Of a DNA stretch of 64,000 nt, positions 4,435 to 20,716 are shown piece by piece (position 1 is the first letter of the stretch; the number at the start of each line of letters is the position of its first letter). Both the position numbers and the translations under genes were made by a program. The stretch is from Rubrobacter xylanophilus (GTDB taxonomy: Bacteria > Actinomycetota > Rubrobacteria > Rubrobacterales > Rubrobacteraceae). The notes under the pieces are model-generated. The model ran no database searches. It saw only the letters and a program-made list of their open reading frames with translations, and was not told the DNA's origin. The DNA lies in the NCBI RefSeq assembly GCF_007164525.1, contig NZ_AP019791.1, forward strand, positions 310,001 through 374,000, given 5' to 3'.

Positions 4435-4877
4435 CGGTACCTCCCCGCCTCCATGAGGGCCTTGAGCCGCATCAGCGACCGCTCGCCGTTTCTGCGGGCG
4501 AAGCGCTCCATGCCGGCGAGCCGGGCCGCCCGCCGCAGGATGGCCCCTCCGGGGGCGAAGCTGCCCGTGTAGTGGACGGTGCAGCAGCCCTCTCCCTCCG
4601 GGCTCACCTCCACCGCACCTTCGCCCTCCACGGTGGAGGTGTACACCCAGCGGATGCGCCCCTCCGAACGCTCTACCACCCGCGCCTCAGGCTTGAGCAA
4701 CCCCACCGGGCTCTCCAGGTGCAGCCGGTAGGCGTCGCCGCCCAGGTCCTCGATCTGCTCGATCCCCACCATCCAGTTGCGGGCGTTGCGGAAGTCCGAG
4801 ATGTACGAGGCGACCCCCGTGGCCGGGGCCCGGATGCGCTGCCGGATGTCCACCGAGGCCCGCCCGCTCACGCCCAT
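4431..4877 (-). CDS. SRPBCC (START-like) domain protein
   Basis: A 148-residue protein with the polyketide cyclase/SRPBCC layout: an N-terminal strand with IRQRIRAPATGVASYISDF, a mid-region W-containing strand pair, and a long C-terminal helix (ARRNGERSLMRLKALMEAG). Such proteins form a deep hydrophobic pocket that binds lipids or aromatic ligands. It lies between the metallopeptidase and tatA genes, overlapping both (10 bases with the former, 4 with the latter), so the three form one transcription unit. The ligand is not predictable. Confidence 0.7.
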   Translation of the reverse strand: MGVSGRASVDIRQRIRAPATGVASYISDFRNARNWMVGIEQIEDLGGDAYRLHLESPVGLLKPEARVVERSEGRIRWVYTSTVEGEGAVEVSPEGEGCCTVHYTGSFAPGGAILRRAARLAGMERFARRNGERSLMRLKALMEAGRYR

Positions 4878-5236
4878 CCCAGCTCCTCCAGCCGCTCGTC
4901 GTCGATGCCGAAGTGGTGGGCTATCTCGTGCACGACCGTGATCCTGACCTGCTCCTCCAGCTCCTCCGGGGGGAAATCCCGCTCCAGAGGGCCGCGGAAG
5001 ATGGTGATCCTGTCCGGCAGGATGCCGTAGTAGCCAGCACCACGCTCGGTGAGAGGGACGCCCTCGTAGAGCCCGTAGAGCGTGTCCTCGGGACCACCGG
5101 CGACGAGCGGGGTGGAGTAGTCCGGCCAGTCCTCGACCACGATGGCGACGTTGTCCAGCAGCTCCCGGAGCTCGGCGGGGAGCCCCTCGAGCGCCCGTTC
5201 GACCAGTTCATGGAATTCCTCGTTCTCCCGGCTCAC
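4868..5236 (-). CDS. Small zincin-like metallopeptidase family protein
   Basis: A 122-residue protein whose C-terminus carries an HExxH zinc motif with a downstream Asp (VVHEIAHHFGIDDERLEELG), as in the short metallopeptidase family of actinobacteria (PF06262-like). The segment LYGLYEGVPLTERG before it is also characteristic. GTG 5236 is preferred because longer in-frame extensions would run into the upstream GntR gene, which ends 8 bases away. Peptidase activity of this family is rarely shown, so the role is uncertain. First gene of the metallopeptidase-SRPBCC-tatA unit. Confidence 0.75.
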   Translation of the reverse strand: MSRENEEFHELVERALEGLPAELRELLDNVAIVVEDWPDYSTPLVAGGPEDTLYGLYEGVPLTERGAGYYGILPDRITIFRGPLERDFPPEELEEQVRITVVHEIAHHFGIDDERLEELGWA

Positions 5237-5243
5237 GGCAGGA

Positions 5244-5930
5244 TCATTGTACAGCGCCCCGTCGTTCGGGTTCCCAGTGCTGCACCGCCCTCCGGACGTG
5301 CTCGGCCATGAGCCGCTCGGCCTCTTCCGGACGTCGGAGCTCCACGGCGGCCAGTATGTCCCGGTGCTCGGCAACGTCCTCGGCCTGCCAGTTCGAGACC
5401 GCGTAGCGGCGGGAGAGCAGGCGCCGCCCGACCTCGACGATCCAGAGCGACTCCAGCACCCGTACGAGCTCCTCGTTGCCGGTGGCCCGTGCGAGCGCGA
5501 GGTGGAAGTCGCGGCTGGCGTCGTGCGCCTCGATGCCGCTGCGCGCAGCCTCCTCGCGCGCTATCGCGGCCTTTAGGCTGGCGATGTCGCGCTCGCTCCT
5601 CCGCTCCGCGGCGAGCCTGGCGATGCCGGGCTCGAGCAGCGCCCGTACCTCCAGTCGCCTTAGCACGGCGTCGAGGCCGAGGTCGGCGACCCGGAAACCC
5701 CGGTTGGAGATCTGATCCACGAGCCCCTCGCCCGCGAGCCGCCGTAGCGCCTCCCGTACGGGGGTGCGCGAGATCCCGAACCGCTCCGCAAGCTCCACCT
5801 GCCCCAGCCGCGCTCCCGGCGCGAGCTCCCCGCTCAGTACCAGATCCCGGATGCGCCGGTAGGCGAGATCCACCACCGAATCCACCCGGATCCGTTCGTC
5901 TCCCCGCCCCGGGCCCGAAACAGCATCCAT
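5244..5930 (-). CDS. GntR/FadR-family transcriptional regulator (FCD domain)
   Basis: A 228-residue regulator. Residues about 18-80 form the winged helix (LAYRRIRDLVLSGELAPGAR, then FGISRTPVREALRRLAGEGL). Residues 90-220 form an all-helical FCD ligand domain with the usual Asp/His metal-site pattern (DFHLALARATGN, EHRDILAAVE, EHVRRAV). FCD regulators typically sense an acid or metabolite of the pathway they control. The gene is divergent from the ten-gene catabolic operon starting at 6053, and a perfect inverted repeat lies between them, so this is the likely local repressor. The inducer is probably a ring-cleavage or amide intermediate (inference). Confidence 0.88.
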   Translation of the reverse strand: MDAVSGPGRGDERIRVDSVVDLAYRRIRDLVLSGELAPGARLGQVELAERFGISRTPVREALRRLAGEGLVDQISNRGFRVADLGLDAVLRRLEVRALLEPGIARLAAERRSERDIASLKAAIAREEAARSGIEAHDASRDFHLALARATGNEELVRVLESLWIVEVGRRLLSRRYAVSNWQAEDVAEHRDILAAVELRRPEEAERLMAEHVRRAVQHWEPERRGAVQ

Positions 5931-5948
5931 GTGCCGATCATAAGCCGC

Positions 5949-6017
5949 ATGGATACATTATTCAATAAAGCCGCCAGAGCTCTTGACGCGATCTCCCATC
6001 CTGGATAATGTATCCAT
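5949..6017. promoter_or_regulatory. Paired operator and promoter of the catabolic operon
   Basis: Two 13-base arms, ATGGATACATTAT at 5949-5961 and its exact reverse complement ATAATGTATCCAT at 6005-6017, flank a sigma70-like promoter reading right: TTGACG at 5983-5988, a 17-base spacer, and TAATGT at 6006-6011 inside the second arm. Each arm contains TGTATCCA, the kind of half-site FCD-type GntR proteins use. The 56-base centre spacing (about five helical turns) would suit looping between two bound dimers, repressing both gntR and the operon. Confidence 0.65.
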
Positions 6018-6052: not shown

Positions 6053-6931
6053 ATGGATCTCGTGGAGGCGATAGAGGCCGGGTACGGGGTGAGGGTGTTG
6101 CACGGCGGGGAGCCTGTGTGGGGGCGGCGGGAGGGGGGTGAGATCCTGCTGGAGAGCGGGGAGCGTATCCCGGAGGCGGGGGCGCGCTATCTCGCGCCGG
6201 CGGAGCCGACGAAGATCCTCGCTGTGCACCTCACCTACCGCAGCCGGGTCGAGGAGTACGGGGCGCGCGTACCGCCCGAGCCCTCGTACTTCCTCAAGCC
6301 GCCGACTACGCTCAACGGGCACCGGGGCGTCGTGCGGCGGCCGGCGGGGACCCGCTTCCTCAACTACGAGGGGGAGCTCGCGGTCATCGTCGGGCGGCGG
6401 ATGAAGGGCGTGGGGATCGACGAGGCGCTCTCGTACGTGGCGGGCTACACCTGCGCCAACGACGTGGGGCTGCACGACTTCCGTCACGCCGACCGCGGAT
6501 CGATGCTGCGGGTGAAGGGGCAGGACGGCTTCCTGCCGCTCGGGCCCGAGACGGTGCCCGCCTCGCGGTTCGACCCCGAGGACTTCGTGCTGCGCACCTA
6601 CCTCAACGGCGAGGTCGTGCAGGAGGGCGGGGCGGACGACCTGCTCTTCGGCGTCGCCTACCAGCTCGCCGACCTGTGCCGCTTCATCACGCTCGAGCCC
6701 GGCGACGTCGTCCTCACCGGGACGCCGGCCAACTCCCGGCCCATGCAGCCCGGCGACGTGGTGGAGGTCGAGATAGAGGGCATAGGCCGCCTCTCCAACA
6801 CCGTCGAGGAGTGGGAGGTGGACCTCTCCGGCCCCGGAGAGCGGCCCGAGGTCTCGGCCAACACGCTGCACGTCGCGCTCGCCGTCCCCGAGGACGAGGC
6901 CGAGCGGCTGGCGGCGGAGGAGGCGCGGTGA
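6053..6931 (+). CDS. Fumarylacetoacetate-hydrolase-family enzyme
   Basis: A 292-residue FAH-fold protein. A short N-terminal domain is followed by the catalytic domain with the metal-ligand pattern E-x-E (FLNYEGELAVIVGRR), then an Asp in GYTCANDVGLHDF, and the loop KGQDGFLPLGPETV found in HpaG/FAHD-type enzymes. Known relatives hydrate, decarboxylate, isomerise or hydrolyse 2-oxo-dienoate products of ring cleavage. It is the first gene of the operon and overlaps the next by 4 bases. In this context it most likely works on the product of the extradiol dioxygenase and aldehyde dehydrogenase encoded downstream. The exact reaction is not determined. Confidence 0.85.
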   Translation: MDLVEAIEAGYGVRVLHGGEPVWGRREGGEILLESGERIPEAGARYLAPAEPTKILAVHLTYRSRVEEYGARVPPEPSYFLKPPTTLNGHRGVVRRPAGTRFLNYEGELAVIVGRRMKGVGIDEALSYVAGYTCANDVGLHDFRHADRGSMLRVKGQDGFLPLGPETVPASRFDPEDFVLRTYLNGEVVQEGGADDLLFGVAYQLADLCRFITLEPGDVVLTGTPANSRPMQPGDVVEVEIEGIGRLSNTVEEWEVDLSGPGERPEVSANTLHVALAVPEDEAERLAAEEAR

Positions 6932-7644
6932 GGGACGGGCGGCCCGCGCTGGTGCGGCAGCACGAGAGGATGACCCCGCCGGGGCTGCTCGCCGACTGGC
7001 TGCGCGAGCGGGGCATCCCGTTCGAGGTCGTGCCGTCCTGGGACGGGGCCCCGGCGCCGGACCCCCGGCGCTACCGGTTCGTGGCCTCGCTCGGCTCCCC
7101 GTACGGGCCGAACGACACCCACGAGCCCGCCGTCGCCGAAGAGCTCCGGCTCATCGAGCGGGCGGTGGAGGAGGGGGTGCCGGTGCTGGGGCTCTGCTTC
7201 GGGGGCGAGGCGCTCTCGGTGGTGCTCGGGGGGAGGGTGGAGCGCGCACCGGTGCCCGAGCTGGGCTGGCGCGAGATCGAGACCGACGACCCAGGGAGGA
7301 TCCCGCCCGGCCCGTGGCTGGAGTGGCACTTCGAGCGCTTCACCACGCCGCCCGGGGCCGTCGAGCTGGCGCGCACCCCGGACGCGGTGCAGGCGTTCCG
7401 GTACGGGCCGCATCTCGGCGTGCAGTTCCACCCCGAGAGCACCGTGGAGATCGTCTCGGAGTGGGCCAGGGCCGACACGGAGCGGCTGGCGAGGCTCGGC
7501 GTAGAGGACTGGCGGGCGCTGCTCGAGGCCCCGCCCGAGCAGCAAGAGGCGGCGAGGGCCGCCGCGTTCAGGCTCTTCGACGCGTTCCTGGCAGAAGGGG
7601 AGAGGGAGCCGGCCGGTGGGGCCGGCGGGAAGGAGAGGAAATGA
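6928..7644 (+). CDS. Class I glutamine-amidotransferase-like hydrolase
   Basis: A 238-residue GATase1 domain standing alone. The nucleophile elbow is VLGLCFGGE (Cys90), and the His/Glu pair sits in GVQFHPES (His168, Glu170), so the triad is complete. It begins at GTG 6928, overlapping the FAH gene stop, with GGAGGAGG just before. Adjacent to a glutamine-synthetase homologue, such proteins are gamma-glutamyl amide hydrolases (PuuD in putrescine, AtdA2/TdnT in aniline catabolism) rather than ammonia suppliers. It probably removes or limits a gamma-glutamyl amide intermediate; a guaA-like role is unlikely because no synthetase partner is present. Confidence 0.8.
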   Translation: MRDGRPALVRQHERMTPPGLLADWLRERGIPFEVVPSWDGAPAPDPRRYRFVASLGSPYGPNDTHEPAVAEELRLIERAVEEGVPVLGLCFGGEALSVVLGGRVERAPVPELGWREIETDDPGRIPPGPWLEWHFERFTTPPGAVELARTPDAVQAFRYGPHLGVQFHPESTVEIVSEWARADTERLARLGVEDWRALLEAPPEQQEAARAAAFRLFDAFLAEGEREPAGGAGGKERK

Positions 7645-8975
7645 TCGAGCAGAAGAAGCAGGCGCTGCCGCCCGAGCTCTCCGATGGCTCGGTCACGTCG
7701 GTGCGGGTGCTGTACGCGGACCTGCACGGCGTGGCGCGCGGCAAGGACGTGCCCGTCGGGGAGTTCGAGCGTGCCATCGAGCACGGACTCGCGTTCTGCT
7801 CGGCGATCATGGGCACCGACCTGCGCCACACCCCCGTGGTGGGCGGGGAGGAGGGCTACCCCGACCTCGTGGCCTACCCCGACCTCTCGACCATGACGCT
7901 CGTGCCCTGGGAGCCCGGGGTGGCGTGCTGCCTCGCCGACCTGCGGCCCGTAGGGGATCACGCGCCGCCCGCCGATCCCCGGGGCGCGGTGCGCCGGGCC
8001 GTGGCGGCCTTCGAGGAGCTGGGTCTCTCGCCCGTGGTGGGGCCGGAGCTCGAGTTCTTCCTGTGTGAGCGTGATGGAGCTGGAGGGGTGCGCCGCTACG
8101 TGGACAACCTCAGCATGGTCTACACCGTCGGGCCGCAGGCCGATCCGCGGGGGATAGTGCGCGAGATCGCCGAGATGCTCTCGAAGATGGGCCTCGGGGC
8201 CTTCGCTGCAAACCACGAGTTCATGAACTCGCAGTACGAGATCAACCTGCACCACGCCGACGCCCTCGCCGCGGCCGACCGGGCCTTCCGCCTCAAGTGC
8301 GCGGTGAAGGACGTGGCCGCGATGCGGGGGCTCGTCGCCACCTTCATGGGCAAGCCGTTCAACGACCAGGGGGGCTCCGGCTTCCACATCCACTTCTCGC
8401 TCGAGCGCGACGGAGAGAATGCTTTCGCGGAGACCGCCGGTGAGGATGGAGTCTCCGATCTCATGCGGCACTTCGTGGCGGGCGTGCTCGAGCACGCCTC
8501 CGGGCTCATGGCCTTCCTCAACCCCACGATAAACGCCTACCGGCGCCTGGTGCCCGACTCGCTCGCGCCGACCCACGCCAACTGGGGCTGGGACAACCGC
8601 ACCGCGTTCGTGCGCATCCCGCCCGAGCGGGGCGGGGCCACGCGGGTCGAGGTGCGCGTGGGTGACGGGAGCGCGAACCCGTATCTCGCGACCGCGGCGA
8701 CCCTCTTCGCCGGGCTGCACGGGGTGCGCGAGCGGCTGCCGCTCGGCCCGCCGGTGGGGGGCGACGCCTACGCGCTCGCCGGGGAGAAGGCGGGGCCGCC
8801 GCTCCCGGCCACGCTCGAGGGCGCGCTGGACGCGCTGGAGGCCGACGAGGTGCTGCGCGGGGCGATGGGGGAGCAGATCGTGGGTGCCTTCCTCGCCATA
8901 AAGCGGTACGAGGTAGAGCGGCACCGCACGTGGGTCTCGGACTGGGAGATCTCCGAGTATTTGCACCACCTGTAG
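7641..8975 (+). CDS. Glutamine-synthetase-like gamma-glutamylamide ligase
   Basis: A 444-residue GS-fold protein. It has the beta-grasp N-domain (VRVLYADLHGVARGKDVPV) and the catalytic domain with metal and ATP motifs GPELEFFL, FNDQGGSGFHIHFSL and a terminal ANPYLATAATLFAGL. It belongs with PuuA/IpuC/AtdA1-type enzymes, which condense glutamate with an amine, not with housekeeping GlnA (shorter, and the adenylylation loop is absent). The start ATG overlaps the amidotransferase stop. With that neighbour it suggests the amine substrate is activated as a gamma-glutamyl amide before oxidation. Confidence 0.85.
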   Translation: MIEQKKQALPPELSDGSVTSVRVLYADLHGVARGKDVPVGEFERAIEHGLAFCSAIMGTDLRHTPVVGGEEGYPDLVAYPDLSTMTLVPWEPGVACCLADLRPVGDHAPPADPRGAVRRAVAAFEELGLSPVVGPELEFFLCERDGAGGVRRYVDNLSMVYTVGPQADPRGIVREIAEMLSKMGLGAFAANHEFMNSQYEINLHHADALAAADRAFRLKCAVKDVAAMRGLVATFMGKPFNDQGGSGFHIHFSLERDGENAFAETAGEDGVSDLMRHFVAGVLEHASGLMAFLNPTINAYRRLVPDSLAPTHANWGWDNRTAFVRIPPERGGATRVEVRVGDGSANPYLATAATLFAGLHGVRERLPLGPPVGGDAYALAGEKAGPPLPATLEGALDALEADEVLRGAMGEQIVGAFLAIKRYEVERHRTWVSDWEISEYLHHL

Positions 8976-8985
8976 GAGGAGGACG

Positions 8986-10230
8986 ATGACGCAGATCAGG
9001 GAGACCGTCCCGCTGGAGGAGATAGACCTCTCCGATCCGGACGCCTTCGTCGAGCGGGTCCCGCACGAGTGGTTCCGCACGCTGCGCCGGGAGGCGCCCG
9101 TCTTCTTCAACCCCGAGCCCGACGGGCCCGGCTTCTGGGTCGTGAGCCGCTACGAGGACATCCGGGAGGTACACCGCCGCTGGGAGATCTACTCCTCCGA
9201 GATCGGGGGGACCTCGCTCGAGGATCTGGAGCCCGACCAGATCGAGGCGCGCAAATCCATGATAGACCTCGACCCGCCGCGCCACGACGAGATCCGGCGC
9301 CTCATCAAGGGCCGCTTCTCGCCGCGGTCGGTGAAGGAGTGGGAGGACCAGGTGCGCGAGGTCGCCCGCGAGGTGATCGAGGCGGCGCTGCCCAAGGGCG
9401 AGTTCGACTTCGTGCGCGAGATCTCCTCGGAGATCCCGATGCGCGTCTTCGCGGACATCCTGGGCGTGCCGCAGGAGGAGCGGCGCTACATCATCGAGAT
9501 CGGGGACCACCTCCTCGGCAACCAGGACCCGGAGTTCGCCCGGCCACCGGAGAAGCCCGAGCACCGGCTGCTGCCGTTCTCGAGCCCGGCGGCGCTGGAG
9601 CTCTTCAGGATCGGGCGCGCCCTCGCCGCGGAGCGCCGCAAGAACCCCAAGGACGACATCATCACCCAGATGGCCTTCGGCGGGCTCACCCAGCGCGAGT
9701 TCGACGTGAACTTCGTGCTTTTGGCCACTGCGGGCAACGAGACGACCCGTCACACCATCACCCACGGCCTGCTGGCCCTCATCGAGAACCCCGACCAGCT
9801 CGAGCGGCTCAGGCGCGACCCCTCCCTCTACCCCTCGGCCGCCGAGGAGATGCTGCGCTGGGCGACCCCCGTGCACCACTTCCGCAGGACCACCACGCAG
9901 GAGACGGAGCTCGCCGGGACGAAGATACCGGCCGGGGCGAAGGTGACGACCTGGTTCACCTCCGGCAACCGCGACGAGACGGTCTTCGAGAGGGCGGACG
10001 CCTTCGACGTCGGCCGGGAGCCGAGCCGGCACCGGGGGCACATGACCTTCGGCCCCGGCGGCAAGCACTTCTGCCTCGGGGCGCACCTGGCGCGGATGGA
10101 GGTGCGGGTGACGTTCGAGGAGCTCATCCCGCGCCTGAGGTCCGTCGAGCTCGCCGGGCCGGTGGACCGGCTGCGCTCCAACTTCTTCAACGGCATAAAG
10201 CGGATGCCCGTCAGGGTGGAGGCGGCGTGA
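8986..10230 (+). CDS. Cytochrome P450 monooxygenase
   Basis: A 414-residue class I bacterial P450. The I-helix oxygen-activation motif is LLATAGNETTRHTITHG, the K-helix ExxR is EEMLR, and the haem loop is FGPGGKHFCLGAHLARME with Cys363 as thiolate ligand. A good AGGAGGAGGA site precedes ATG 8986. No ferredoxin or reductase gene is nearby, so it must use a shared redox chain. In the operon it takes the place that a Rieske dioxygenase or flavin hydroxylase holds in aromatic amine pathways and probably hydroxylates the ring or an N-alkyl group; substrate is inferred only. Confidence 0.9.
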   Translation: MTQIRETVPLEEIDLSDPDAFVERVPHEWFRTLRREAPVFFNPEPDGPGFWVVSRYEDIREVHRRWEIYSSEIGGTSLEDLEPDQIEARKSMIDLDPPRHDEIRRLIKGRFSPRSVKEWEDQVREVAREVIEAALPKGEFDFVREISSEIPMRVFADILGVPQEERRYIIEIGDHLLGNQDPEFARPPEKPEHRLLPFSSPAALELFRIGRALAAERRKNPKDDIITQMAFGGLTQREFDVNFVLLATAGNETTRHTITHGLLALIENPDQLERLRRDPSLYPSAAEEMLRWATPVHHFRRTTTQETELAGTKIPAGAKVTTWFTSGNRDETVFERADAFDVGREPSRHRGHMTFGPGGKHFCLGAHLARMEVRVTFEELIPRLRSVELAGPVDRLRSNFFNGIKRMPVRVEAA

Positions 10231-11150
10231 TCTCGCTGCGCCGCATCGACCACGTGAGCCTGCGGACCGCCGACCCCGAAGAGGCCGCCCGCCGCTGGTC
10301 GGCGCAGTTCGGCCTCGCCGTGCGCGAGAGCGGCGGAGACCGCGCCCGCCTCGCCTGCGACGACGAGCCCTTCTCGCTCGAGCTGATCGCCGCCGAAGGA
10401 CCCGGCGTCGAGCACGTCGCCTACGAGCTGCGCCGCTCGTGCACCCTCGAGGACGCGCGGCGGCACTTCGAGGACCGCGGCGTCCCCTACGAAGAGCACG
10501 CGGGCGGCCTGAGGGTCGCCGACCCGGAGGGCAACCGGGTGCTCGTGCTCCCCTACCGGGAGCCCCGGGAGCGGTGGGTTGCGCACGCGCGGGCGGCCAC
10601 GGACCAGATCCTCGGGCACCCCCGCAAGCTCGGGCACGTCAACTTCCTCACCGGCAGGCTCTCCGAGGGCGTCGAGTTCTATACCGGGGTGCTCGGGATG
10701 CGGATCACCGACCGGCTCGGCGACGGGGGCGTCTGGTTCCACATAAACGCCGACCACCACGTCATGGCGCTCGTGGACAAGGGCTACTCCCACTTCCACC
10801 ACCTCGCCTTCGACGTCGTGGACATCGGGCAGATGCGGCTCGCGCTCGACCACCTCGGGCGGCACGGGCGCTGGCTCGGCTGGGGGCCGGTGCGCCACGG
10901 CATCGGGGGCAACATCGCCGCCTACGTGCGCATCGTTGAGGAGGAGTGCTTCGTCGAGCTCTACTGCGACATGGAGCAGCTCGAGGCCGACCACGAGGTG
11001 CGCCGCTGGCCGGACAACCGCTTCTCCTCCAACACCTGGGGCCCCCTGCCGCCCCGCTCCTACTTCCGCTTCGACGAGGCGGCGATCGCCTCCGAGCGCG
11101 AGAGCCTGGAGATGCTGGGTCACCCCCTACCCGAGGAGGTCTCCCCTTGA
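10227..11150 (+). CDS. Type I extradiol ring-cleavage dioxygenase (VOC family)
   Basis: A 307-residue two-domain vicinal-oxygen-chelate protein; the N-domain is degenerate and the C-domain catalytic. The Fe(II)/Mn(II) facial triad is visible: His137 in KLGHVNFLT, a His in SHFHHLAFDV (191 or 192), and Glu244 in CFVELYCD. The second-shell signature PVRHGIGGNIAAYVRI matches the conserved active-site loop of catechol 2,3-dioxygenase and homoprotocatechuate dioxygenase. GTG 10227 overlaps the P450 stop. It indicates a catecholic intermediate that is opened by meta cleavage. Confidence 0.85.
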   Translation: MISLRRIDHVSLRTADPEEAARRWSAQFGLAVRESGGDRARLACDDEPFSLELIAAEGPGVEHVAYELRRSCTLEDARRHFEDRGVPYEEHAGGLRVADPEGNRVLVLPYREPRERWVAHARAATDQILGHPRKLGHVNFLTGRLSEGVEFYTGVLGMRITDRLGDGGVWFHINADHHVMALVDKGYSHFHHLAFDVVDIGQMRLALDHLGRHGRWLGWGPVRHGIGGNIAAYVRIVEEECFVELYCDMEQLEADHEVRRWPDNRFSSNTWGPLPPRSYFRFDEAAIASERESLEMLGHPLPEEVSP

Positions 11151-11947
11151 GCCTGAAAGGTTACACCGTCCCGCGCACCAGCACTGGCAAGGCGAGCCTC
11201 GTCCCGCCGCCGCCGTGGCACTACGTCGGCGACTTCCTCGTCGTGGACTACTGGGCCGACCCCGACGCGGTGCGCGCCGTACTACCGGAGGGGCTCGAGC
11301 CGCACCCCGACCCCGGGAGGTGCGCCGCCGTCTTCGCCGACTGGCAGTCGTGCTCCGAGGGCGGCGAGGAGCTTGTGGACCCGATCCGGTCCCACTACCG
11401 CGAGTTCTTCATCGTGGTGAACGCCCTCTTCGAGGGAGAGGAGGTCACCACCTGCCCGTTCATCTGGGTGGACCAGGACTTCGCGCTGGCGCGCGGCTGG
11501 ATCCAGGGCTTCCCCAAGAAGCTGGGCTCGATCTGGATGACCCGCACCTTCGGCCTCGACGTCCCCGCCGACCCCGGCCTGAGGCCCGGCGGACGGCATG
11601 GCGCGACCTGTTCCGCCCGCGGGCGCCAGATCGCCGAGATGACCCTCACCATCGAGGGCGAGAGCGTCGACGGACCGCGCCACAACGCCCCACCGATCGT
11701 CAACGTGCGCCACTTCCCGCGTCTGGCCGCCGGACGTCACGACGACCCGCAGGTGCACGAGCTGGTGCGCGCCGTGAGCCGCGACCGTGCGATCTCGAAG
11801 GTCTACGCCGGACCGGCCACCCTCACCCTGCACCCGGCCCCCGGCGAGGAGCACTACTCTTTAGCCCCCGTGAAGATCGACCGCGGCTACCGCTTCACCT
11901 TCGGCTACACCGTGGACGACCTGAAGACCGTTAAGGAGCTCGTATGA
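11147..11947 (+). CDS. Acetoacetate-decarboxylase-like enzyme
   Basis: A 266-residue protein starting at TTG 11147, which overlaps the dioxygenase stop; GAGGAGGT lies 6-8 bases upstream. It has the acetoacetate decarboxylase superfamily core, including the Schiff-base lysine pair in WIQGFPKKLGSIW (Lys124-Lys125) and late strands (ISKVYAGPATLTLHPAP, FTFGYTVDDLKTV). Family members decarboxylate beta-keto acids or act as imine-forming aldolases and dehydratases. Within a ring-cleavage operon it may replace 4-oxalocrotonate decarboxylase or act on a later keto acid. This is an unusual partner, and the assignment of its step is inference. Confidence 0.75.
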   Translation: MSLKGYTVPRTSTGKASLVPPPPWHYVGDFLVVDYWADPDAVRAVLPEGLEPHPDPGRCAAVFADWQSCSEGGEELVDPIRSHYREFFIVVNALFEGEEVTTCPFIWVDQDFALARGWIQGFPKKLGSIWMTRTFGLDVPADPGLRPGGRHGATCSARGRQIAEMTLTIEGESVDGPRHNAPPIVNVRHFPRLAAGRHDDPQVHELVRAVSRDRAISKVYAGPATLTLHPAPGEEHYSLAPVKIDRGYRFTFGYTVDDLKTVKELV

Positions 11948-13410
11948 GAACGGCCACCGAACGCATCCGGGTCGCGGGCGTGGAGGTCTCCCCCGACCAC
12001 TTCATCGGGGGGGAGCGGGTCGCGAGCGAGCGGCGCTTCGAGGACATCTCCCCGATCACGGCCGAGCCCATCGCCGAGGTCTCACGCGCCGGAGAGGCCG
12101 AGGTGGACGCCGCGGTGCGCGCCGCCCACGAAGCCTTCCCGGGGTGGGCGGCCTTGGGCCCCGCGGGCCGCGCCCCCTACCTGCACCGGCTCGCCGACCT
12201 CATAGACGCCAACGTCGAGCGGCTCGCGGCCGTCGAGTGCATGGACATGGGGATGCTGTTGCGCTCGCTGCGGGCGCGCGTCATCCGCCGCGGGGCCCGC
12301 AACTACCGCGCCTACGCCGACCTCGCCGCATCCTACGAGGAGCGCGACTGGCGCTCGCAGGGCACCTGGAACCGGGTGCAGAGGATGCCCGCCGGGCCCG
12401 CCGCGGTCATCACGCCCTGGAACGCGCCGTTCATGCTCTCTACCTGGAAGACCGCCCCGACTCTGGCCGCCGGCTGCACCGTAGTCCTCAAGCCCGCCGA
12501 GTGGTCGCCCCTCTCCTGCTCGCTGCTCGTCGACCTCGCCTCCGAGGCCGGCTTCCCGCCCGGCGTCTTCAACGTCGTGCAGGGGATCGGGGAGGAGGCC
12601 GGGGCGGCGCTCGTCTCTCACCCCCTTCTGCGGCGCGTCTCGTTCACCGGCTCGCCGGAGACAGGGCGCTCCATAGGGGTGGCCGCCGCGAAGAACCTCG
12701 TCCCGTTCACCGCCGAGCTCGGGGGCAAGGGACCCCTGATCGTCTTCGAAGACGCCGACCTCGACGCCGCCGCGCGCAGGGCCGCCGGCCAGTACGACGA
12801 CGCCGGGCAGGTCTGCCTCGCCGGGACGCGCCTGCTCGTGCAGGAGTCCGTGGCCGGGGAGTTCCTGGAGCTCTTCCACCGCTACGCCGACGAGCACGTC
12901 CTCGGCGACCCGCGCGACGAGCACACCACCGTCTCGCCCCTCATCCACCCCGACCACCTCAGGCGCGTCGAGGGTTTCGTCGAGCGCGCCCGCGCGGAGG
13001 GTCACAAAGTATTGCGCGGCGGGCGGCGCTCGCCCGCGGGGCCGCTCTTCTACCAGCCCACCCTCATCGAGCCGCTCTCCAACGACGCCGAGATCGTTCA
13101 GCGCGAGGTCTTCGGCCCCGTCCTCACCCTCCAGACCTTCGCCGACGAGGAGGAGGCCATAGCTCTCGCGAACTCCACCGAGTACGGCCTCTCCGGGATC
13201 GTCTACACCTCCTCGATGGGGCGCGCCGAGCGCGTCGGGCGGGCGGTGCGCGCGGGCGTGGTGTGGGTGAACACCTTCCTGGTGCGCGACCTCACCGCCC
13301 CCTTCGGCGGGATGGGCATCTCCGGCATCGGGCGCGAGGGCGGCGACTACGCGCTGGACTTCTACTCCGACCTGAAGACCCTCCAGATCCTGGAGGGCAG
13401 CACCCGATGA
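11944..13410 (+). CDS. NAD-dependent aldehyde dehydrogenase (muconic semialdehyde type)
   Basis: A 488-residue ALDH with all catalytic residues: Asn160 in ITPWNAPFM, Glu258 in TAELGGKGP, Cys291 in DDAGQVCLAGTR, and the cofactor motif FTGSPETGRS. Its N-terminus (HFIGGERV ... FEDISPITAEPIAEV) resembles 5-carboxymethyl-2-hydroxymuconate and 2-hydroxymuconate semialdehyde dehydrogenases. ATG 11944 overlaps the preceding stop. It would oxidise the semialdehyde produced by the extradiol enzyme; a gamma-glutamyl-aminoaldehyde substrate (PuuC-like) is the alternative. Confidence 0.88.
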   Translation: MRTATERIRVAGVEVSPDHFIGGERVASERRFEDISPITAEPIAEVSRAGEAEVDAAVRAAHEAFPGWAALGPAGRAPYLHRLADLIDANVERLAAVECMDMGMLLRSLRARVIRRGARNYRAYADLAASYEERDWRSQGTWNRVQRMPAGPAAVITPWNAPFMLSTWKTAPTLAAGCTVVLKPAEWSPLSCSLLVDLASEAGFPPGVFNVVQGIGEEAGAALVSHPLLRRVSFTGSPETGRSIGVAAAKNLVPFTAELGGKGPLIVFEDADLDAAARRAAGQYDDAGQVCLAGTRLLVQESVAGEFLELFHRYADEHVLGDPRDEHTTVSPLIHPDHLRRVEGFVERARAEGHKVLRGGRRSPAGPLFYQPTLIEPLSNDAEIVQREVFGPVLTLQTFADEEEAIALANSTEYGLSGIVYTSSMGRAERVGRAVRAGVVWVNTFLVRDLTAPFGGMGISGIGREGGDYALDFYSDLKTLQILEGSTR

Positions 13411-14684
13411 ACGACGTGGCCCTCCTCGACGCCGTCGCCGCCGAAGCGGAGTGGATGGAGGAGCTGCTGGCGCGCCTCGTCGAGGCCCCGACCACCCTCG
13501 GAAACGAGGAGGCGGGGCAGCTCATCATGGAGGAGGCCCTCGCCGGCTGCGGCCTGAAGGTCCGCAGCGTCCCGCTCGACGCGGATGCGCTCCGCAGCGC
13601 CGAGGGCGCCTCCCCGTTCTCCTGGGACGTAGAGGGCAAGCGCAACGTCGTCGCAGAATGGCCCGCGGGCGGTTCGGGCGGGCGCTCCCTGATCCTGAAC
13701 GGCCACATCGACGTCGTCCCGCCCGCCGCCGAAGGGTTGTGGACGCACCCTCCCTTCGCGGCGGTGCGCGAGGGAGACTGGCTCTACGGCCGCGGCGCCG
13801 GAGATATGAAGGCCGGGCTCGCCGCGATGGCCGGCGCGGTGCGCGCCCTCGCCCGGGCCGGCTATGCCCCGGCGGCGCCGGTGCAGCTGCAGTCGGTCGT
13901 CGAGGAGGAGTGCACGGGGCACGGGGCACTGCAGTGTCTGCTCCATGGCTCGCGCGCCGACGCCTGCGTCATAGCCGAGCCCCACCCGGACCACCTCACC
14001 GTCGCGCAGGTCGGGGTCTTGTGGTTCCACGTCGACATCGCCGGCGTCCCGGCGCACGCTGCGCGGGCGAGCCGGCTGGGTTTCAACGCCGTCGAGGCCG
14101 CCTGCGCGGTCCTCGCCGCGCTCCGGCGGCTGGAGCGGCAACTCAACGAGGACCCGCCGCCCCCCTTCGACGCCCTCGAGCACCCCATCAACCTGAACCC
14201 CGGCGTGATCTCCGGCGGCGACTGGCCCTCAACGGTGGCGGCGACCTGCACGCTCTCCTGCCGCATCGGGCTCTACCCCGGCCAGAGCCCGGAGGAGATG
14301 CGCGACCTCGTCGAGAGGACGGTCGCCGAAGCCGCCTCCGAGGACCCGCGCCTGGCCGAAAACCCGCCTAAGGTGCGCTACGACGGGTTCGCGTGCGAGG
14401 GGGCCGTGGTTGATAGGGGGGAGCCGGTGGTGCGGACGCTCTCGGCGGCCTACGAGAGGGTGCACGGGGAGAAGCCGGAGCTTGTGGCCACCACCGCCAC
14501 CACCGACGTCCGCCACTTCGTGCGCGCGGGCATCCCCGCGGTCTGCTTCGGGCCGCGGGCCGAGAACATCCACGGCATAGACGAGCGCGTCTCGCTGCGG
14601 TCGGTCGTCGAGAGTGCGCAGGTGCTCGGGCTGTTCATAAAGGACTGGTGCGGCCTCGTGAGGGGCCCGGGAAAGGAGGAGTGA
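13407..14684 (+). CDS. M20-family deacylase/peptidase (ArgE/DapE-like)
   Basis: A 425-residue zinc hydrolase. Metal-site motifs are GHIDVVP (His), YGRGAGDMKAG (bridging Asp), VVEEECTGHG (catalytic Glu and ligand), IAEPH, and the final His in GPRAENIHGIDERV. The lid/dimer domain begins at VGVLWFHVDIAGVPAHAARA. Such enzymes cleave amide bonds of N-acyl amino acids or dipeptides. In this operon it could release a free amino acid or amine from an N-acyl or gamma-glutamyl conjugate, or prepare an imported N-acyl substrate. It overlaps both neighbours. Confidence 0.85.
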   Translation: MNDVALLDAVAAEAEWMEELLARLVEAPTTLGNEEAGQLIMEEALAGCGLKVRSVPLDADALRSAEGASPFSWDVEGKRNVVAEWPAGGSGGRSLILNGHIDVVPPAAEGLWTHPPFAAVREGDWLYGRGAGDMKAGLAAMAGAVRALARAGYAPAAPVQLQSVVEEECTGHGALQCLLHGSRADACVIAEPHPDHLTVAQVGVLWFHVDIAGVPAHAARASRLGFNAVEAACAVLAALRRLERQLNEDPPPPFDALEHPINLNPGVISGGDWPSTVAATCTLSCRIGLYPGQSPEEMRDLVERTVAEAASEDPRLAENPPKVRYDGFACEGAVVDRGEPVVRTLSAAYERVHGEKPELVATTATTDVRHFVRAGIPAVCFGPRAENIHGIDERVSLRSVVESAQVLGLFIKDWCGLVRGPGKEE

Positions 14685-16216
14685 TGTCCAGCATGGAAAC
14701 GCCGACACCCACGCCCGCGGCGAGCGAGAGCGCCAAGCTCCACCGCCGCGCGCTCGGGGTGCCGGACCTCGTGTTCTTCATCGTGGCGGCCTCGGCGCCC
14801 CTGACGGCGGTGGCGGGTGGGCAGGCGGCGACCTACCTGGTCACCGGCAACCGGGGCGTCCCGTTCATGTTTATACCTTTAGGGATCATCCTCGCCCTCT
14901 TCGCCGTGGGGTATGCGGCGATGAGCCGCCACGTGGCCAACGCCGGGGCCTTCTACTCCTACGTCGCCCGGGGGCTGGGCAAGGCGCCTGGGGTGGGGGC
15001 GGCCTTCGTGGCTCTGATTGCGTACAACGCGATGCAGATCGGGATCTACGGCCTCTTCGGCGTGGCGATGGGGGCTTTTATGTCCGGCTACCTCGGCGTG
15101 GAGCTGCCCTGGTGGGCCTGGTGCCTGATCGGCGCGGGGGTGATCGGGGTGCTCGGCGTCTTGCAGATAGACCTCAACGCCCGCGTGCTCGCGGTGGCCC
15201 TCGTCCTCGAGGTGCTCGTCGTCGCGCTCTTCGACCTGGCCGTCTTCGCCGACCCCGGACCACAGGGGCTCTCCCTCGTCGGCTTCGACCCGACGGTCGC
15301 CTTCGGGGCGGCGGCGGGCGCAACGCTCACCTTCTGCGTCGCCTCCTTTGTCGGGTTCGAGTCGGCGGCGATCTACTCCGAGGAGTGCCGCGACCCCCGG
15401 CGCACCGTGGCGCGGGCGACGTTCATCGCGGTCGGCCTGATCGCGGCCTTCTACGCCCTCTCGAGCTGGCTGCTCTCGGTCGCCGCCGGGCCGGACACGA
15501 TCGTGAACCCGGCCCGGCTGGTCGAGTCGGGCTTCGCCACCGCCGGAAACCCCGACCCGACGACGGTGCTCTTCGTCGCGGGGGCCGAGCGCCTCGGTGA
15601 GATCTGGGGCACCGCCGCGGCGCTTTTGTTCGCGACGAGCCTCTTCGCGGCGCTCCTCTCGTTCCACAACGCGGTGGCCCGCTACGCGTTCGCGCTCGGC
15701 CGCGAGGGCGTCCTCCCGCGGGCGTTCGGGACGGTGCACGCGATCACCGGGGCGCCCGTGGTCGCCTCGCTGGCGCAGACCGTCCTCGCGGTCTCGGTCG
15801 TCGGGATCTTCGCCCTCGCCGCCGCGGACCCGGTGCTGACGCTCTTCACCTGGCTGACGAACCTGGGCGCTCTCGGCGTGCTGCTCCTCATGACGGTCAC
15901 CTCCTTCGCCGTCGTGGGGTACTTCCGGCGGCGCCCGGAGGAGGGGCTCGGCCGCTGGACGACCGCCGTAGCCCCGGCGGTCGCGGGTGCGCTCCTGCTC
16001 GTCGTCTTCGTCCTCGGCGTGACGAACTTCAACGTCCTCATCACCGGCTCGACCGAGGCCCCGACGGACCCCATGACGATAGTGCTCCCGGCGATCCTGT
16101 TCGGCGGCGGGGTGCTGGGTCTCCTCGTCGGGGCGATCCTCAAGGCGCGCCGCTCCGAGGTCTACCGCAGGATCGGTGAGGGAGGGGCGGAGCTCGAGCG
16201 CCAGGAGTTGCCGTGA
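14684..16216 (+). CDS. APC-superfamily amino acid/amine permease
   Basis: A 510-residue transporter with about a dozen hydrophobic segments. It has the APC opening motif (VPDLVFFIVAASAPLTAVAGG) and the unwound helix regions of the family (FVGFESAAIYSEECRDPRRT). It begins at ATG 14684, one base into the preceding TGA, with AAAGGAGG upstream. It is probably the uptake system for the operon's substrate, a free or modified amino acid or biogenic amine. An upstream in-frame GTG at 14648 is less likely because it lacks a ribosome site and overlaps further. Confidence 0.85.
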   Translation: MSSMETPTPTPAASESAKLHRRALGVPDLVFFIVAASAPLTAVAGGQAATYLVTGNRGVPFMFIPLGIILALFAVGYAAMSRHVANAGAFYSYVARGLGKAPGVGAAFVALIAYNAMQIGIYGLFGVAMGAFMSGYLGVELPWWAWCLIGAGVIGVLGVLQIDLNARVLAVALVLEVLVVALFDLAVFADPGPQGLSLVGFDPTVAFGAAAGATLTFCVASFVGFESAAIYSEECRDPRRTVARATFIAVGLIAAFYALSSWLLSVAAGPDTIVNPARLVESGFATAGNPDPTTVLFVAGAERLGEIWGTAAALLFATSLFAALLSFHNAVARYAFALGREGVLPRAFGTVHAITGAPVVASLAQTVLAVSVVGIFALAAADPVLTLFTWLTNLGALGVLLLMTVTSFAVVGYFRRRPEEGLGRWTTAVAPAVAGALLLVVFVLGVTNFNVLITGSTEAPTDPMTIVLPAILFGGGVLGLLVGAILKARRSEVYRRIGEGGAELERQELP

Positions 16217-17661
16217 GGCGCCGGGAGGCGCGTAGCCCTTCCACCCCGCAGCACGAGCGGGCCGACCTCCCCGCCCTTGCCGACCGCGAGGGAGTGCTGG
16301 AGGAGCTGGTGCGCGTGATCTGCGAGGCGTGGGCGTCGTTCGACGCCCCGCGCCCCGCCGAGCCGCAGCTCGGGGAGGAGCTGGCCGCGCGCCTCGTCGC
16401 GCCGCTGCCCGAGGAGCCCGGAGACGTGGAGGACGCCCTCTCCGACGCCGCCCGGGTGCTGGACGCGAGCGTCTCGCCCTCACGCCCGCTCAACCTGGGC
16501 TACATCGGCTCGACGGGCCTCGAGATGGGCGTGCTGGGCTCGGCGCTCGCTGCCACCTACGACGTGAACCTCGCCGTCACCGCGGGCGGGGCGGACCTGG
16601 TCGAGGAGCAGGCCCTGCGCTGGCTCGCAGACTTCGTCGGCTTCCCGCTCGCGGAGGGCGCCTTCACGAGCGGCGGCATGACCTCGAACCTCACGGCGCT
16701 GCTGGCGGCGCGTGAGCGGGCGCTCCCCGGCTCGCGCACCGACGGGCTCACGGGCCGCCGGGCGGCCGTGTACTGCTCGGAGGAGGCCCACCACTCGGTG
16801 GTCCGCGCCGTCGAGGTCTGCGGCCTCGGGAGCGCCGCCGTCCGGCGCATCCCGCTCGACGACCGGCGCCGGATGCGCCCGGAAGCTCTCGATGCGGCCG
16901 TCTCCCGCGACGCCGCATCCGGTATAACTCCCGTCGCCGTGGTCGCGACGGCGGGCACGACGCTCACGGGTGCCGTTGACCCGCTGGACGAGATCGCCGA
17001 CGTCTGCGGGCGCCACGGCGTCTGGATGCACGTGGACGGGGCGTACGGCCTCCCGGCCGCGGCCGTCCCGGAGACCGCGCCGCTCTTCGCCGGCCTCGAG
17101 CGGGCCGACTCGACGACCGTGGACGCCCACAAGTGGCTCGGGGTGCAGAAGAGCTGCAGCGCCGTCATGCTGCGGGAGACCGGGCGGCTGCGGGCCGCGT
17201 TCGGTCACGAGGAGCGCTACATGCTGCACGAGGGCGACGTCCCCAACCCGGTGGACCGCACGCTCGAGTATTCCCGCCCTCTGCGCTCCCTGAGGCTGTG
17301 GATGGCCCTCCGCGTCCACGGCGCCGCCCAGTACCGGATCTGGATCAAACGCACCCTCGATAACGCCCGACACCTCACCGGGCTGCTGCGCGAGGCGCCG
17401 GACTTCGAGCTCCTGCACGAGCCGATGCTCTCCACCGTCTGCTTCCGGCACGCGCCATCCGGCCTCCGCGACCCCGACGCGCACAACCTCCGCCTCGCCC
17501 GGGAGATGCAGCGCGACGGGCGCGTCTTTCTCGCTCCGGCCTCCGTGGACGGCCGGGCCTGCCTGCGTGCCTGCTTCGTGAACTTCCGCACCACCGCCCG
17601 TGATGTAGAACGCATCCTCCCCGTCGCCCGCGAGGTCGGCGGCCGGCTGGTCCGCCCCTGA
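16213..17661 (+). CDS. PLP-dependent group II decarboxylase (aromatic amino acid type)
   Basis: A 482-residue fold-type I PLP enzyme. Visible hallmarks are FTSGGMTSNLTALLAARE, the His stacking on the cofactor in SEEAHHSVVRA, the Asp in WMHVDGAYGL, and the Schiff-base lysine in VDAHKWLGVQKSC (Lys307). It groups with aromatic-L-amino-acid/tyrosine/tryptophan/glutamate decarboxylases. It overlaps the permease stop by 4 bases and is the last gene of the operon. It could turn an imported amino acid into the amine on which the gamma-glutamyl ligase acts, linking uptake to the pathway. Confidence 0.85.
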   Translation: MRRREARSPSTPQHERADLPALADREGVLEELVRVICEAWASFDAPRPAEPQLGEELAARLVAPLPEEPGDVEDALSDAARVLDASVSPSRPLNLGYIGSTGLEMGVLGSALAATYDVNLAVTAGGADLVEEQALRWLADFVGFPLAEGAFTSGGMTSNLTALLAARERALPGSRTDGLTGRRAAVYCSEEAHHSVVRAVEVCGLGSAAVRRIPLDDRRRMRPEALDAAVSRDAASGITPVAVVATAGTTLTGAVDPLDEIADVCGRHGVWMHVDGAYGLPAAAVPETAPLFAGLERADSTTVDAHKWLGVQKSCSAVMLRETGRLRAAFGHEERYMLHEGDVPNPVDRTLEYSRPLRSLRLWMALRVHGAAQYRIWIKRTLDNARHLTGLLREAPDFELLHEPMLSTVCFRHAPSGLRDPDAHNLRLAREMQRDGRVFLAPASVDGRACLRACFVNFRTTARDVERILPVAREVGGRLVRP

Positions 17662-19368: not shown

Positions 19369-19440
19369 ATCATAGGGTCCGGCAAACCTATGCTCGCCTC
19401 CCAAGCCTTCCGCATACCGCTTGACACTCTGCTATTTTAA

Positions 19441-20716
19441 TGTTACAGGACTTACGCGGTAGGGTGATTGATCGACCCCAAAACCAAGGGACATCACAAC
19501 CGGATACGATGAGGTTTGCCCAAACCAATCGCAACCGGCGGAGGTTCCTCCATGACGTCCCGACTGTATCGTACCACCCGTCCTCTGGCCGCCCAGGTTG
19601 CCCTCATGCTGTGTCGCCTCGGCATCGGCGAAGTGGGCACCCCGACAACAACCGGGCTGATCACGCTGTACGTGAGCGGCCTTATCCTTTTGGATGGGCG
19701 TCAGACGCATACCCACGCGTGGCGCTCTTTCTGCCTGGCCGAGCTCACGATGCGCTCAACCGGCTTTTGAGGGTGATGCTCCTCTCCACGAGGGCGCTGA
19801 TGGGAGTGCTGATCGCTTGGATCAAGCGCCACGGGGAGGAGGATGGCTACCTCTGCCTGGACGACTGCCTCATCGAGAAGGCTTTCGCCAAAAAGCTTCC
19901 CTGGGCCGGGTGGACCTACTCCTTCGCCAAGAAGCGCAAGGTCTACGGGTTGCACATCGTGGTGCTCTTGTGGTGCACGAGCGACGGTCGCTGGCGCATC
20001 CCCGTGGCCTTCCGCTTGTGGCGCCCCAAACGCTCGTGTGCTCCACACACCTACCGGACCAAGCTCAGGCTGGCGGAGGTTATGATCAAGGAGGTCATCG
20101 GTTCGGGACTCAAAGCTCGCTACATCGTCTTCGACACCCACTACACGGCCGGGTGGTTCACCAAGATGGTGAGAAGGCTCGGGCTCGTCTGGGTGGGCAC
20201 GCTGCCTCCTCGGACGAGCGTCGTCTGGCGCGGCCAAAGGCGATCAGTCGCCGAGTTGGCTCGGAGAGTGCCCCTCAAGTGGCACAAGCGGCTCGGGATG
20301 CGTGCCACAGCCGTGGTAGTCTACGCTCCCAAGTATGGCTCCTTGCGGTTGGTTGTGACCAGAAACCGTCACGGCAACCACGAGTACATCGTCACAAACG
20401 ATCCGGGAGGGGATCTCACCACGGTAGTTTTGCGCAAGATGCGCCGCTGGAGCATCGAGACGCTCTTCCGCGACAGCAAGCAGTTTGCGGGTTTGGAGGC
20501 GTGCCAATGCCGGGTGGACCAAGCGATGGTGCGCCACGTCGGCCTCGTTTTGCTCACCTGCGTCGTTATGCAGATGATGCGCCGGTTCATGGGCGAGAGC
20601 GTGGGTTCGGTCAAGGAGCGCTGGCAGTTGGAGGTGATGCGAGACGGCGAATCTTCCCCTCCACTCCTCAAGGCTTGTCCGCTTCATCTGCGGGCCACCG
20701 CGTAAGTCCTGTAACA
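19441..20716. mobile_element. Insertion sequence, IS4/IS701-like, with perfect 20-bp ends
   Basis: A 1,276-base element bounded by perfect 20-bp terminal inverted repeats: TGTTACAGGACTTACGCGGT at 19441-19460 and its reverse complement at 20697-20716. TAA occurs directly outside both ends (19438-19440 and 20717-20719), consistent with a 3-bp target duplication, though AT-rich chance is possible. It carries one transposase gene. Intact ends suggest recent insertion compared with the other decayed elements of the island. Confidence 0.9.
19552..20705 (+). pseudogene. DDE transposase of the IS4/IS701-like element, frame-broken
   Basis: The reading frame starts at ATG 19552 after GGCGGAGG (MTSRLYRTTRPLAAQVALML ... 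LILLDGRQTHT) and must shift by -1 between about 19700 and 19730 to continue as ALFLPGRAHDALNRLLRVML. The second part holds the catalytic triad: CLDDCLIEK (Asp), YIVFDTHYTAGWF (Asp), and WSIETLFRDSKQFAGLEACQ (Glu within the YREK-like motif). Either a disabling indel or programmed frameshifting would explain it. CTTTTGG at the junction is a weak slippery candidate. Both halves are otherwise well preserved. Confidence 0.75.

What the first reader, a model, noticed from the sequence alone, without database searches (positions are those of the whole stretch)
5949..6017. Looping-competent pair of perfect 13-bp inverted sites controlling the operon
The two arms are exact reverse complements 56 bp apart, one on each side of the promoter and one covering the -10 box. 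The helical phasing (about 5 turns) and the divergent GntR/FCD gene make repression by loop or by two bound dimers plausible.
Basis: partly seen in the sequence, partly recalled or inferred. Interest (0 to 1): 0.5.

Follow-up and report, generated by a model that had tools for sequence, protein, structure and literature searches.

The report
Paired operators of a GntR/FCD repressor
Two copies of a short, nearly symmetrical DNA word sit on the two back-to-back promoters of a catabolic operon and of its neighbouring regulator gene in a Rubrobacter-type bacterium, and they are most likely ordinary repressor-binding sites, one per promoter, rather than the feet of a DNA loop.

Summary
The 13-bp arms are real and exact (5949-5961, 6005-6017). 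They are parts of two 15-bp near-palindromes, TGGATA-N3-TATCCA: site 1 (5950-5964, one mismatch) and site 2 (6002-6016, perfect). Each copy reads almost alike on both strands, so the 'inverted pair' follows from each being symmetrical. Both sites occur in 11 of 11 orthologous Rubrobacteraceae loci (degenerate in one) between the same GntR/FCD gene and the same FAA-hydrolase gene. Site 2 lies 19 bases from the operon's TTGAC in 11 of 11; site 1 carries the regulator's own -35 (TTGAAT) in 10 of 11. The distance between the sites varies from 43 to 53 bp, including 48 (4.6 turns), and site 2's central triplet is flipped in 4 of 11. So each site is tied to its own promoter, not to the other site. 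The word recurs before a decarboxylase gene that has left the operon in three genomes. Best explanation: the adjacent regulator represses the operon from site 2 and itself from site 1. A loop is not excluded by the protein (its top Foldseek hit, Atu1419, loops 190 bp), but spacing and orientation speak against it. A double-site divergon, new member of a known kind; binding untested.

The parts
5950..5964 (.). Site 1, TGGATACATTATTCA: operator on the regulator's promoter; its one departure from the palindrome makes the TTGAAT -35 (minus strand)
   Evidence: exact sequence in 7 of 11 loci, TTGAAT in 10 of 11
6002..6016 (.). Site 2, TGGATAATGTATCCA: perfect 15-bp operator covering the operon's -10
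   Evidence: TGGATANNNTATCCA in 10 of 11 loci, 19 bases from TTGAC in 11 of 11
6008..6017 (.). ATGTATCCAT: even dyad inside site 2, 9 of 10 letters of the Atu1419 operator ATGTATACAT
   Evidence: PMC7797058 (passages)
5949..5958 (.). ATGGATACAT: the same even dyad inside site 1 (reverse complement)
5983..5988 (+). -35 of the operon promoter, TTGACG
   Evidence: TTGAC in 11 of 11 loci; consensus match only
6006..6011 (+). -10 of the operon promoter, TAATGT (TANNNT, 17-bp spacer); GATAAT at 6004-6009 with 15 bp is the alternative
   Evidence: TANNNT at 17 bp in 11 of 11 loci; not listed by the promoter scan
5960..5965 (-). -35 of the regulator promoter, TTGAAT, overlapping site 1
5937..5942 (-). 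-10 of the regulator promoter, TATGAT; the start codon follows after 6 bases, so the mRNA is probably leaderless
   Evidence: start codon 6-7 bases after the -10 in 11 of 11 loci, in frame by eye
5244..5930 (-). GntR/FCD regulator, 228 aa, the presumed repressor of both promoters
6053..6931 (+). FAA hydrolase (HpaG-like), first gene of the operon
6928..17661 (+). Rest of the operon: GATase, glutamine-synthetase-like, P450, extradiol-type VOC protein, ADC family, aldehyde dehydrogenase, ArgE/DapE deacylase, APC permease, PLP decarboxylase; closely packed, start codons of the ADC and permease genes not settled
   Evidence: order of the first six genes kept in 5 relatives, L036-L040

Best explanation
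A double-site divergon of a GntR/FCD (VanR-group-like) repressor. A dimer of the protein encoded at 5244-5930 binds site 2 and blocks RNA polymerase at the operon's -10; another dimer binds site 1 and blocks the -35 of the regulator's own, probably leaderless, promoter. An effector, most likely an acid or amine-derived intermediate of the pathway encoded by the operon, lifts both. Shown by sequence: sites, conservation, fixed promoter register, recurrence at other genes. Inferred: binding by this protein, repression, autoregulation, effector, start points of transcription.
For: Both sites lie between the regulator and the FAA gene in 11 of 11 Rubrobacteraceae loci with the orthologue, degenerate in G004. 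In the family, exact TGGATANNNTATYCA occurs in 10 of 39 genomes, the same 10 of 39 that hold the orthologue (E 3.5e-86 or better; next best match 1.5e-25); reversed-pattern control: 2 of 39. TTGAC to site 2 is 19 bases in 11 of 11. Site 1's conserved mismatch gives TTGAAT (10 of 11), 17 bp from TANNAT (11 of 11) and 6-7 bases from the start codon. In the 3 genomes of genus g2 the PLP decarboxylase (78% identical, one match per genome at E 1e-80) lies on another contig and has its own site; the TTGAC distance is again 19 in 2 of 3, 31 in the third. R. taiwanensis (G010) has a further site TGGATAATGTATACA, again 19 bases from TTGAC, before a deacetylase-family gene and an amidase. The recognition segment SRTPVRE is invariant in 15 of 15 orthologues, and the embedded ATGTATCCAT matches 9 of 10 letters of the FCD operator ATGTATACAT, including G3 and C8 (PMC7797058 passages).
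Against: No binding or expression data. The co-occurrence is partly mere synteny, because the sites travel with the locus; independent evidence is the decarboxylase (one lineage) and the R. taiwanensis site. In G004 both sites are degenerate (TGGATACATTGTGCA, TGAATAATTTATACA) and its only exact match lies near another GntR/FCD paralogue (45% identical over 86 aa) and a symporter gene, so related regulators can use the same word. In genus g2 site 1 has lost the central CAT. A third place of the window's genome with one mismatch (589142, TGGATAGCTGATCCA) lies between two divergent open frames that were not identified. The TANNNT -10 is a weak match and the promoter scan did not list the operon promoter.
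Confidence: 0.86

Rival explanations
1. Looping: a tetramer (or two touching dimers) of the regulator holds both sites and closes a loop of about 52 bp around the two -35 elements.
For: The top Foldseek hit by E-value is Atu1419, a tetrameric FCD repressor with ATGTATACAT palindromes seen by electron microscopy to loop 190 bp (PMC7797058, passages). 8 of 11 spacings are within 0.2 turn of a whole number of turns.
Against: Spacing varies 43-53 bp, with 48 bp (4.57 turns) in 3 of 11 loci, all of one genus; the centre of site 2 is flipped in 4 of 11; 5 of 7 more distant orthologous loci show a single site. By TM-score (normalised by the query) the model is nearer to McbR (0.74) than to Atu1419 (0.53-0.59) among the 50 rows listed. 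A 52-bp loop is stiff (general knowledge). If the even dyads are the binding units the spacing in the window is 59 bp, 5.6 turns (counted by hand).
Confidence: 0.07
2. Co-operative pair: two dimers act as one complex site that controls both promoters together.
For: Pairs with near-constant spacing make up 29 of 100 FadR-subfamily double-site divergons with a regulator gene in PMC4494728 (section 16 read). Spacing here varies only over 43-53 bp.
Against: 37 bp separate the site edges in the window, far for direct contact of two ordinary dimers (inference); each site keeps a fixed register to its own promoter while the spacing drifts.
Confidence: 0.1
3. The sites belong to another GntR/FCD protein of the cell, not to the neighbour.
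For: In G004 an exact site lies near a different GntR/FCD gene and a symporter gene; the window's genome has 13 matches to the regulator at E 0.001 or better, itself included.
Against: Exact motif in none of the 29 family genomes without the orthologue, although 25 of these 29 hold weaker matches to the regulator.
Confidence: 0.05
4. Chance or structural repeat (hairpin, mobile-element end) without regulatory role.
For: Exact inverted 13-mers occur at 3 places in the window.
Against: Conserved word in a fixed promoter register in 11 of 11 loci; arms that drift in spacing and orientation speak against a conserved hairpin.
Confidence: 0.01

Closest known systems
Atu1419 of Agrobacterium fabrum (FCD, VanR group; PMC7797058, abstract and passages read)
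   Same: Repressor with two palindromes in the intergenic region beside its gene, one over the neighbour gene's -10 and one between -10 and -35 of its own gene; same core ATGTATnCAT; recognition residues Ser-Arg-Thr-x-x-Arg; three conserved histidines
   Different: Palindromes 190 bp apart and looped there; here 43-53 bp. The operator here has an added TGGATA half-box. 31-32% identity in the structural alignment. The fourth metal ligand (Asn/Asp) is Ser in 15 of 15 orthologues here
Double-site divergons of the FadR subfamily (Suvorova et al. 2015, PMC4494728; abstract, sections 10, 16, 17 and passages read)
   Same: Regulator gene and structural operon back to back with two sites; an extra weaker half-site 7-12 nt from the palindrome centre is a known feature
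   Different: The string TGGATAC was not found at a word start in the text; supplements not read
PmiR of Pseudomonas aeruginosa, McbR of E. coli, TM0439 (FCD structures)
   Same: Best sequence match (PmiR 7xp0), best TM-score among rows listed (McbR 4p9f), second-best sequence match (TM0439 3sxy)
   Different: Other ligands and operators (recalled, not checked)

Membership tests
GntR family, FCD subfamily regulator | N-terminal GntR winged helix-turn-helix and C-terminal FCD domain | tested here: met
   PF00392 65.8 bits (cut-off 27), PF07729 84.1 bits (cut-off 24.3)
VanR group of FCD | Six rather than seven helices in the effector domain | tested here: inconclusive
   The model (mean pLDDT 82.6) shows seven segments from 86 to 226, two of them (153-162, 165-178) in or next to a weak stretch that may be one bent helix; the top Foldseek hits include Atu1419, McbR and others that PMC7797058 puts in the VanR group
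Metal-binding FCD proteins | Three histidines plus Asp/Asn as metal ligands | tested here: not met
   H143, H189, H211 invariant in 15 of 15; the position four before H143, Asp in TM0439 in the alignment, is Ser139 in 15 of 15. A metal could still be held otherwise
FadR/FCD-type operator | A/T-rich palindrome with TKGT/ACMA boxes, 2-3 nt between GT and AC | tested here: inconclusive
   ATGTATCCAT fits but for one letter; the better symmetry is the 15-bp odd dyad (77% of 182 cells against 65% of 130 cells complementary over 26 related sites). L043 (Solirubrobacterales) has a perfect ATGTATACAT
Double-site divergon, separate-site type | Each site near its own gene; spacing grows with intergenic length | tested here: inconclusive
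   Each site keeps its register to its own promoter and spacing varies; the correlation with intergenic length was not computed
DNA-looping repressor (Atu1419-like) | Tetramer, two sites bound at once | not testable with these tools
   Only a single chain was modelled; comparative spacing speaks against

The most novel reading that the evidence does not exclude
Each 15-bp site is a composite of three half-boxes: a canonical even FCD dyad (ATGTATCCAT) overlapped by a wider odd dyad (TGGATA-N3-TATCCA) that arose in Rubrobacteraceae, while more distant orthologues with the same recognition segment use the plain even dyad. The regulator would bind with an unusual half-site spacing or as two overlapping dimers, and the same unit can sit either way round relative to the promoter.
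Probability: 0.2. Interest if true: 0.4.

Novelty: new member of a known kind. Interest (0 to 1): 0.24.

Why it matters
It gives a testable regulon for an uncharacterised aromatic/amine-type catabolic operon in Rubrobacter-type actinobacteria: the conserved word marks the operon, the regulator, a decarboxylase that has left the operon, and in R. taiwanensis a deacetylase-family gene. That narrows the substrate and the effector. It also shows a clean case where an operator's one conserved imperfection is explained by a promoter element it must also serve.

Tried and rejected
Hairpin or transposon-end reading: rejected because spacing and orientation drift while each unit stays. Strict helical phasing: not borne out, 48-bp spacing in genus g2. 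Wider regulon in the window's own genome: only 3 places with at most one mismatch; the list up to two mismatches (25 places against 12 for the reversed pattern) was not followed up. A relaxed match in G021 contig C192 lies inside a long open reading frame (by eye Mur-ligase-like) and was dropped. Distant orthologous loci: L041, L042, L043, L044 and L100 have one site each, L045 two weak ones, L101 none seen by eye in the 311 bases read; L042 and L044 do not have the FAA gene beside the regulator, so they are weak support. Loci not used: L046-L051 (distant, 6 of 17) and L015-L034 (no close regulator beside the gene). Five loci (L036-L040) are the same contigs as loci and were counted once. Paper searches: (7 papers listed; Rubrobacter with GntR: 4 papers, none on this subject by title; motif strings with GntR: 95 papers with two of four terms, 20 listed, only PMC7797058 relevant by title and start of abstract; 2 papers) gave no description of this site in Rubrobacter; supplements were not searched.

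Full report
ATGGATACATTAT (5949-5961) and its exact reverse complement (6005-6017) are present. Each is part of a 15-bp near-palindrome, TGGATA-N3-TATCCA: site 1 TGGATACATTATTCA at 5950-5964 and site 2 TGGATAATGTATCCA at 6002-6016. Since each unit is symmetrical, two copies always look like an inverted pair. With independent bases at the window's composition 3.4e-5 matches with at most one mismatch are expected in 123 bp and two are found; the 3.02-Mb genome has three in all, against 0.84 expected.

The gap separates a GntR/FCD regulator (5244-5930, minus; Pfam GntR 65.8 bits, FCD 84.1 bits) from ten closely packed genes, 6053-17661, taken here as one operon. Reading both strands gives two promoters. 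The operon: TTGACG (5983-5988), 17 bp, TAATGT (6006-6011), with site 2 over the -10. The regulator, minus strand: TTGAAT (5965-5960), 17 bp, TATGAT (5942-5937), then the ATG after 6 bases; this was the only sigma-70-type hit of the scan, which did not list the operon promoter. Site 1 covers that -35. So there is one site per promoter.

Comparison: the regulator has an orthologue in 10 of 39 family genomes, the window's own included, and on one further contig (L035). In these 11 loci the gene pair is the same, and both sites are present, in degenerate form in G004. TGGATANNNTATCCA is intact at site 2 in 10 of 11; site 1 reads TGGATACATTATTCA in 7 of 11, TGGATATTTTATTCA (2) or CGGATATTTTATTCA (1) in the three genomes of genus g2, and TGGATACATTGTGCA in G004. 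The regulator's -35 is TTGAAT in 10 of 11 and its -10 TANNAT in 11 of 11, with a start codon, in frame by eye, 6 bases on in 8 and 7 bases on in 3. The conserved imperfection of site 1 is therefore readily explained: a perfect palindrome would turn the -35 into TTGGAT.

Loop test: TTGAC to site 2 is 19 bases in 11 of 11. The two sites are 52, 51, 51, 44, 53, 52, 43, 53, 48, 48 and 48 bp apart (G000, G001, L035, G010, G011, G009, G021, G004, G014, G022, G002). That is 4.95, 4.86, 4.86, 4.19, 5.05, 4.95, 4.10, 5.05 and three times 4.57 turns of 10.5 bp. Site 2's central triplet is ATG in 6, CAT in 4 and ATT in 1. Register to the promoter is kept, register to the other site is not. Against this, 8 of 11 values are near whole turns, and the loci are related, so the number of independent spacings is smaller than 11.

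Regulon test: the exact motif TGGATANNNTATYCA is found in 10 of 39 family genomes, the same 10 that hold the orthologue. Beyond the divergon it occurs once in each of the three g2 genomes, just upstream of a PLP decarboxylase 78% identical to the one that ends the window's operon. One search finds one such gene in 9 of 10 genomes: on the operon's contig in 6, on another contig in the three g2 genomes, none in G010. At two of the three g2 sites TTGAC is again 19 bases away; in the third it is 31. G010 (Rubrobacter taiwanensis, since its contig has the length and the genes of the named record) has a relaxed match, TGGATAATGTATACA, again 19 bases from TTGAC, before a histone-deacetylase-family gene and an amidase. 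In G004 the exact match lies between another GntR/FCD gene and a sodium:solute symporter gene, in the spacer of TTGACT-17-TATAGT; this may be that paralogue's site.

Operator and protein: inside the 15-mer lies ATGTATCCAT, 9 of 10 letters of ATGTATACAT, the operator in the Atu1419 crystal structures, where Arg45 reads G3 (PMC7797058, passages). The recognition segment SRTPVRE is invariant in 15 of 15 orthologues. The second site and the wider TGGATA dyad thus look like additions of Rubrobacteraceae. Over 26 oriented sites (22 of the divergons, 3 at the decarboxylase, 1 of the paralogue) the odd dyad is 77% and the even dyad 65% complementary, the two best centres (over 7 and 5 pairs); which one the dimer uses is open. 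The AlphaFold model (mean pLDDT 82.6) has Atu1419 as top Foldseek hit by E-value and McbR as best TM-score among the 50 rows listed (0.74).

Known setting: double-site divergons are common for this subfamily: 100 with a regulator gene in PMC4494728, 71 with spacing that grows with intergenic length (taken as separate sites) and 29 with near-constant spacing (section 16). The present case is a new example, more like the separate type by its promoter registers, though I did not compute the correlation with intergenic length.

Noticed in passing
window 6053-17661: The operon joins HpaG-, HpaD- and HpaE-like genes with a glutamine-synthetase-like gene, a GATase, a P450, an MppR-like ADC protein, an ArgE/DapE deacylase, a permease and a PLP decarboxylase; of these ten only the deacylase passes an NCBIfam cut-off. 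It may be an unusual route for aromatic amines.
   Followed up: partly
L084:1501-1515: In G004 the exact operator fills the spacer of a near-consensus promoter (TTGACT-17-TATAGT) before a sodium:solute symporter gene, next to another GntR/FCD gene.
   Followed up: partly
L111:2000-2014: R. taiwanensis has a further site before a histone-deacetylase-family gene and an amidase, with the same 19-base register to TTGAC.
   Followed up: partly
window 5244-5930, residue 139: The FCD metal ligand Asp/Asn is replaced by Ser in 15 of 15 orthologues while the three histidines are invariant.
   Followed up: no
L044:755-3499: In a Solirubrobacterales contig the regulator orthologue lies near a 71% identical PLP decarboxylase, with no FAA gene found on the piece held.
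   Followed up: no
L003:1501-1515 (genome 589142-589156): The third place of the genome with one mismatch, TGGATAGCTGATCCA, lies between two divergent open frames; not identified.
   Followed up: no
window 4868-5374: Zincin-like metallopeptidase (PF06262) just downstream of the regulator.
   Followed up: no
window 19440-20705: Long open frame that looks like a transposase by eye (translation; not searched).
   Followed up: no
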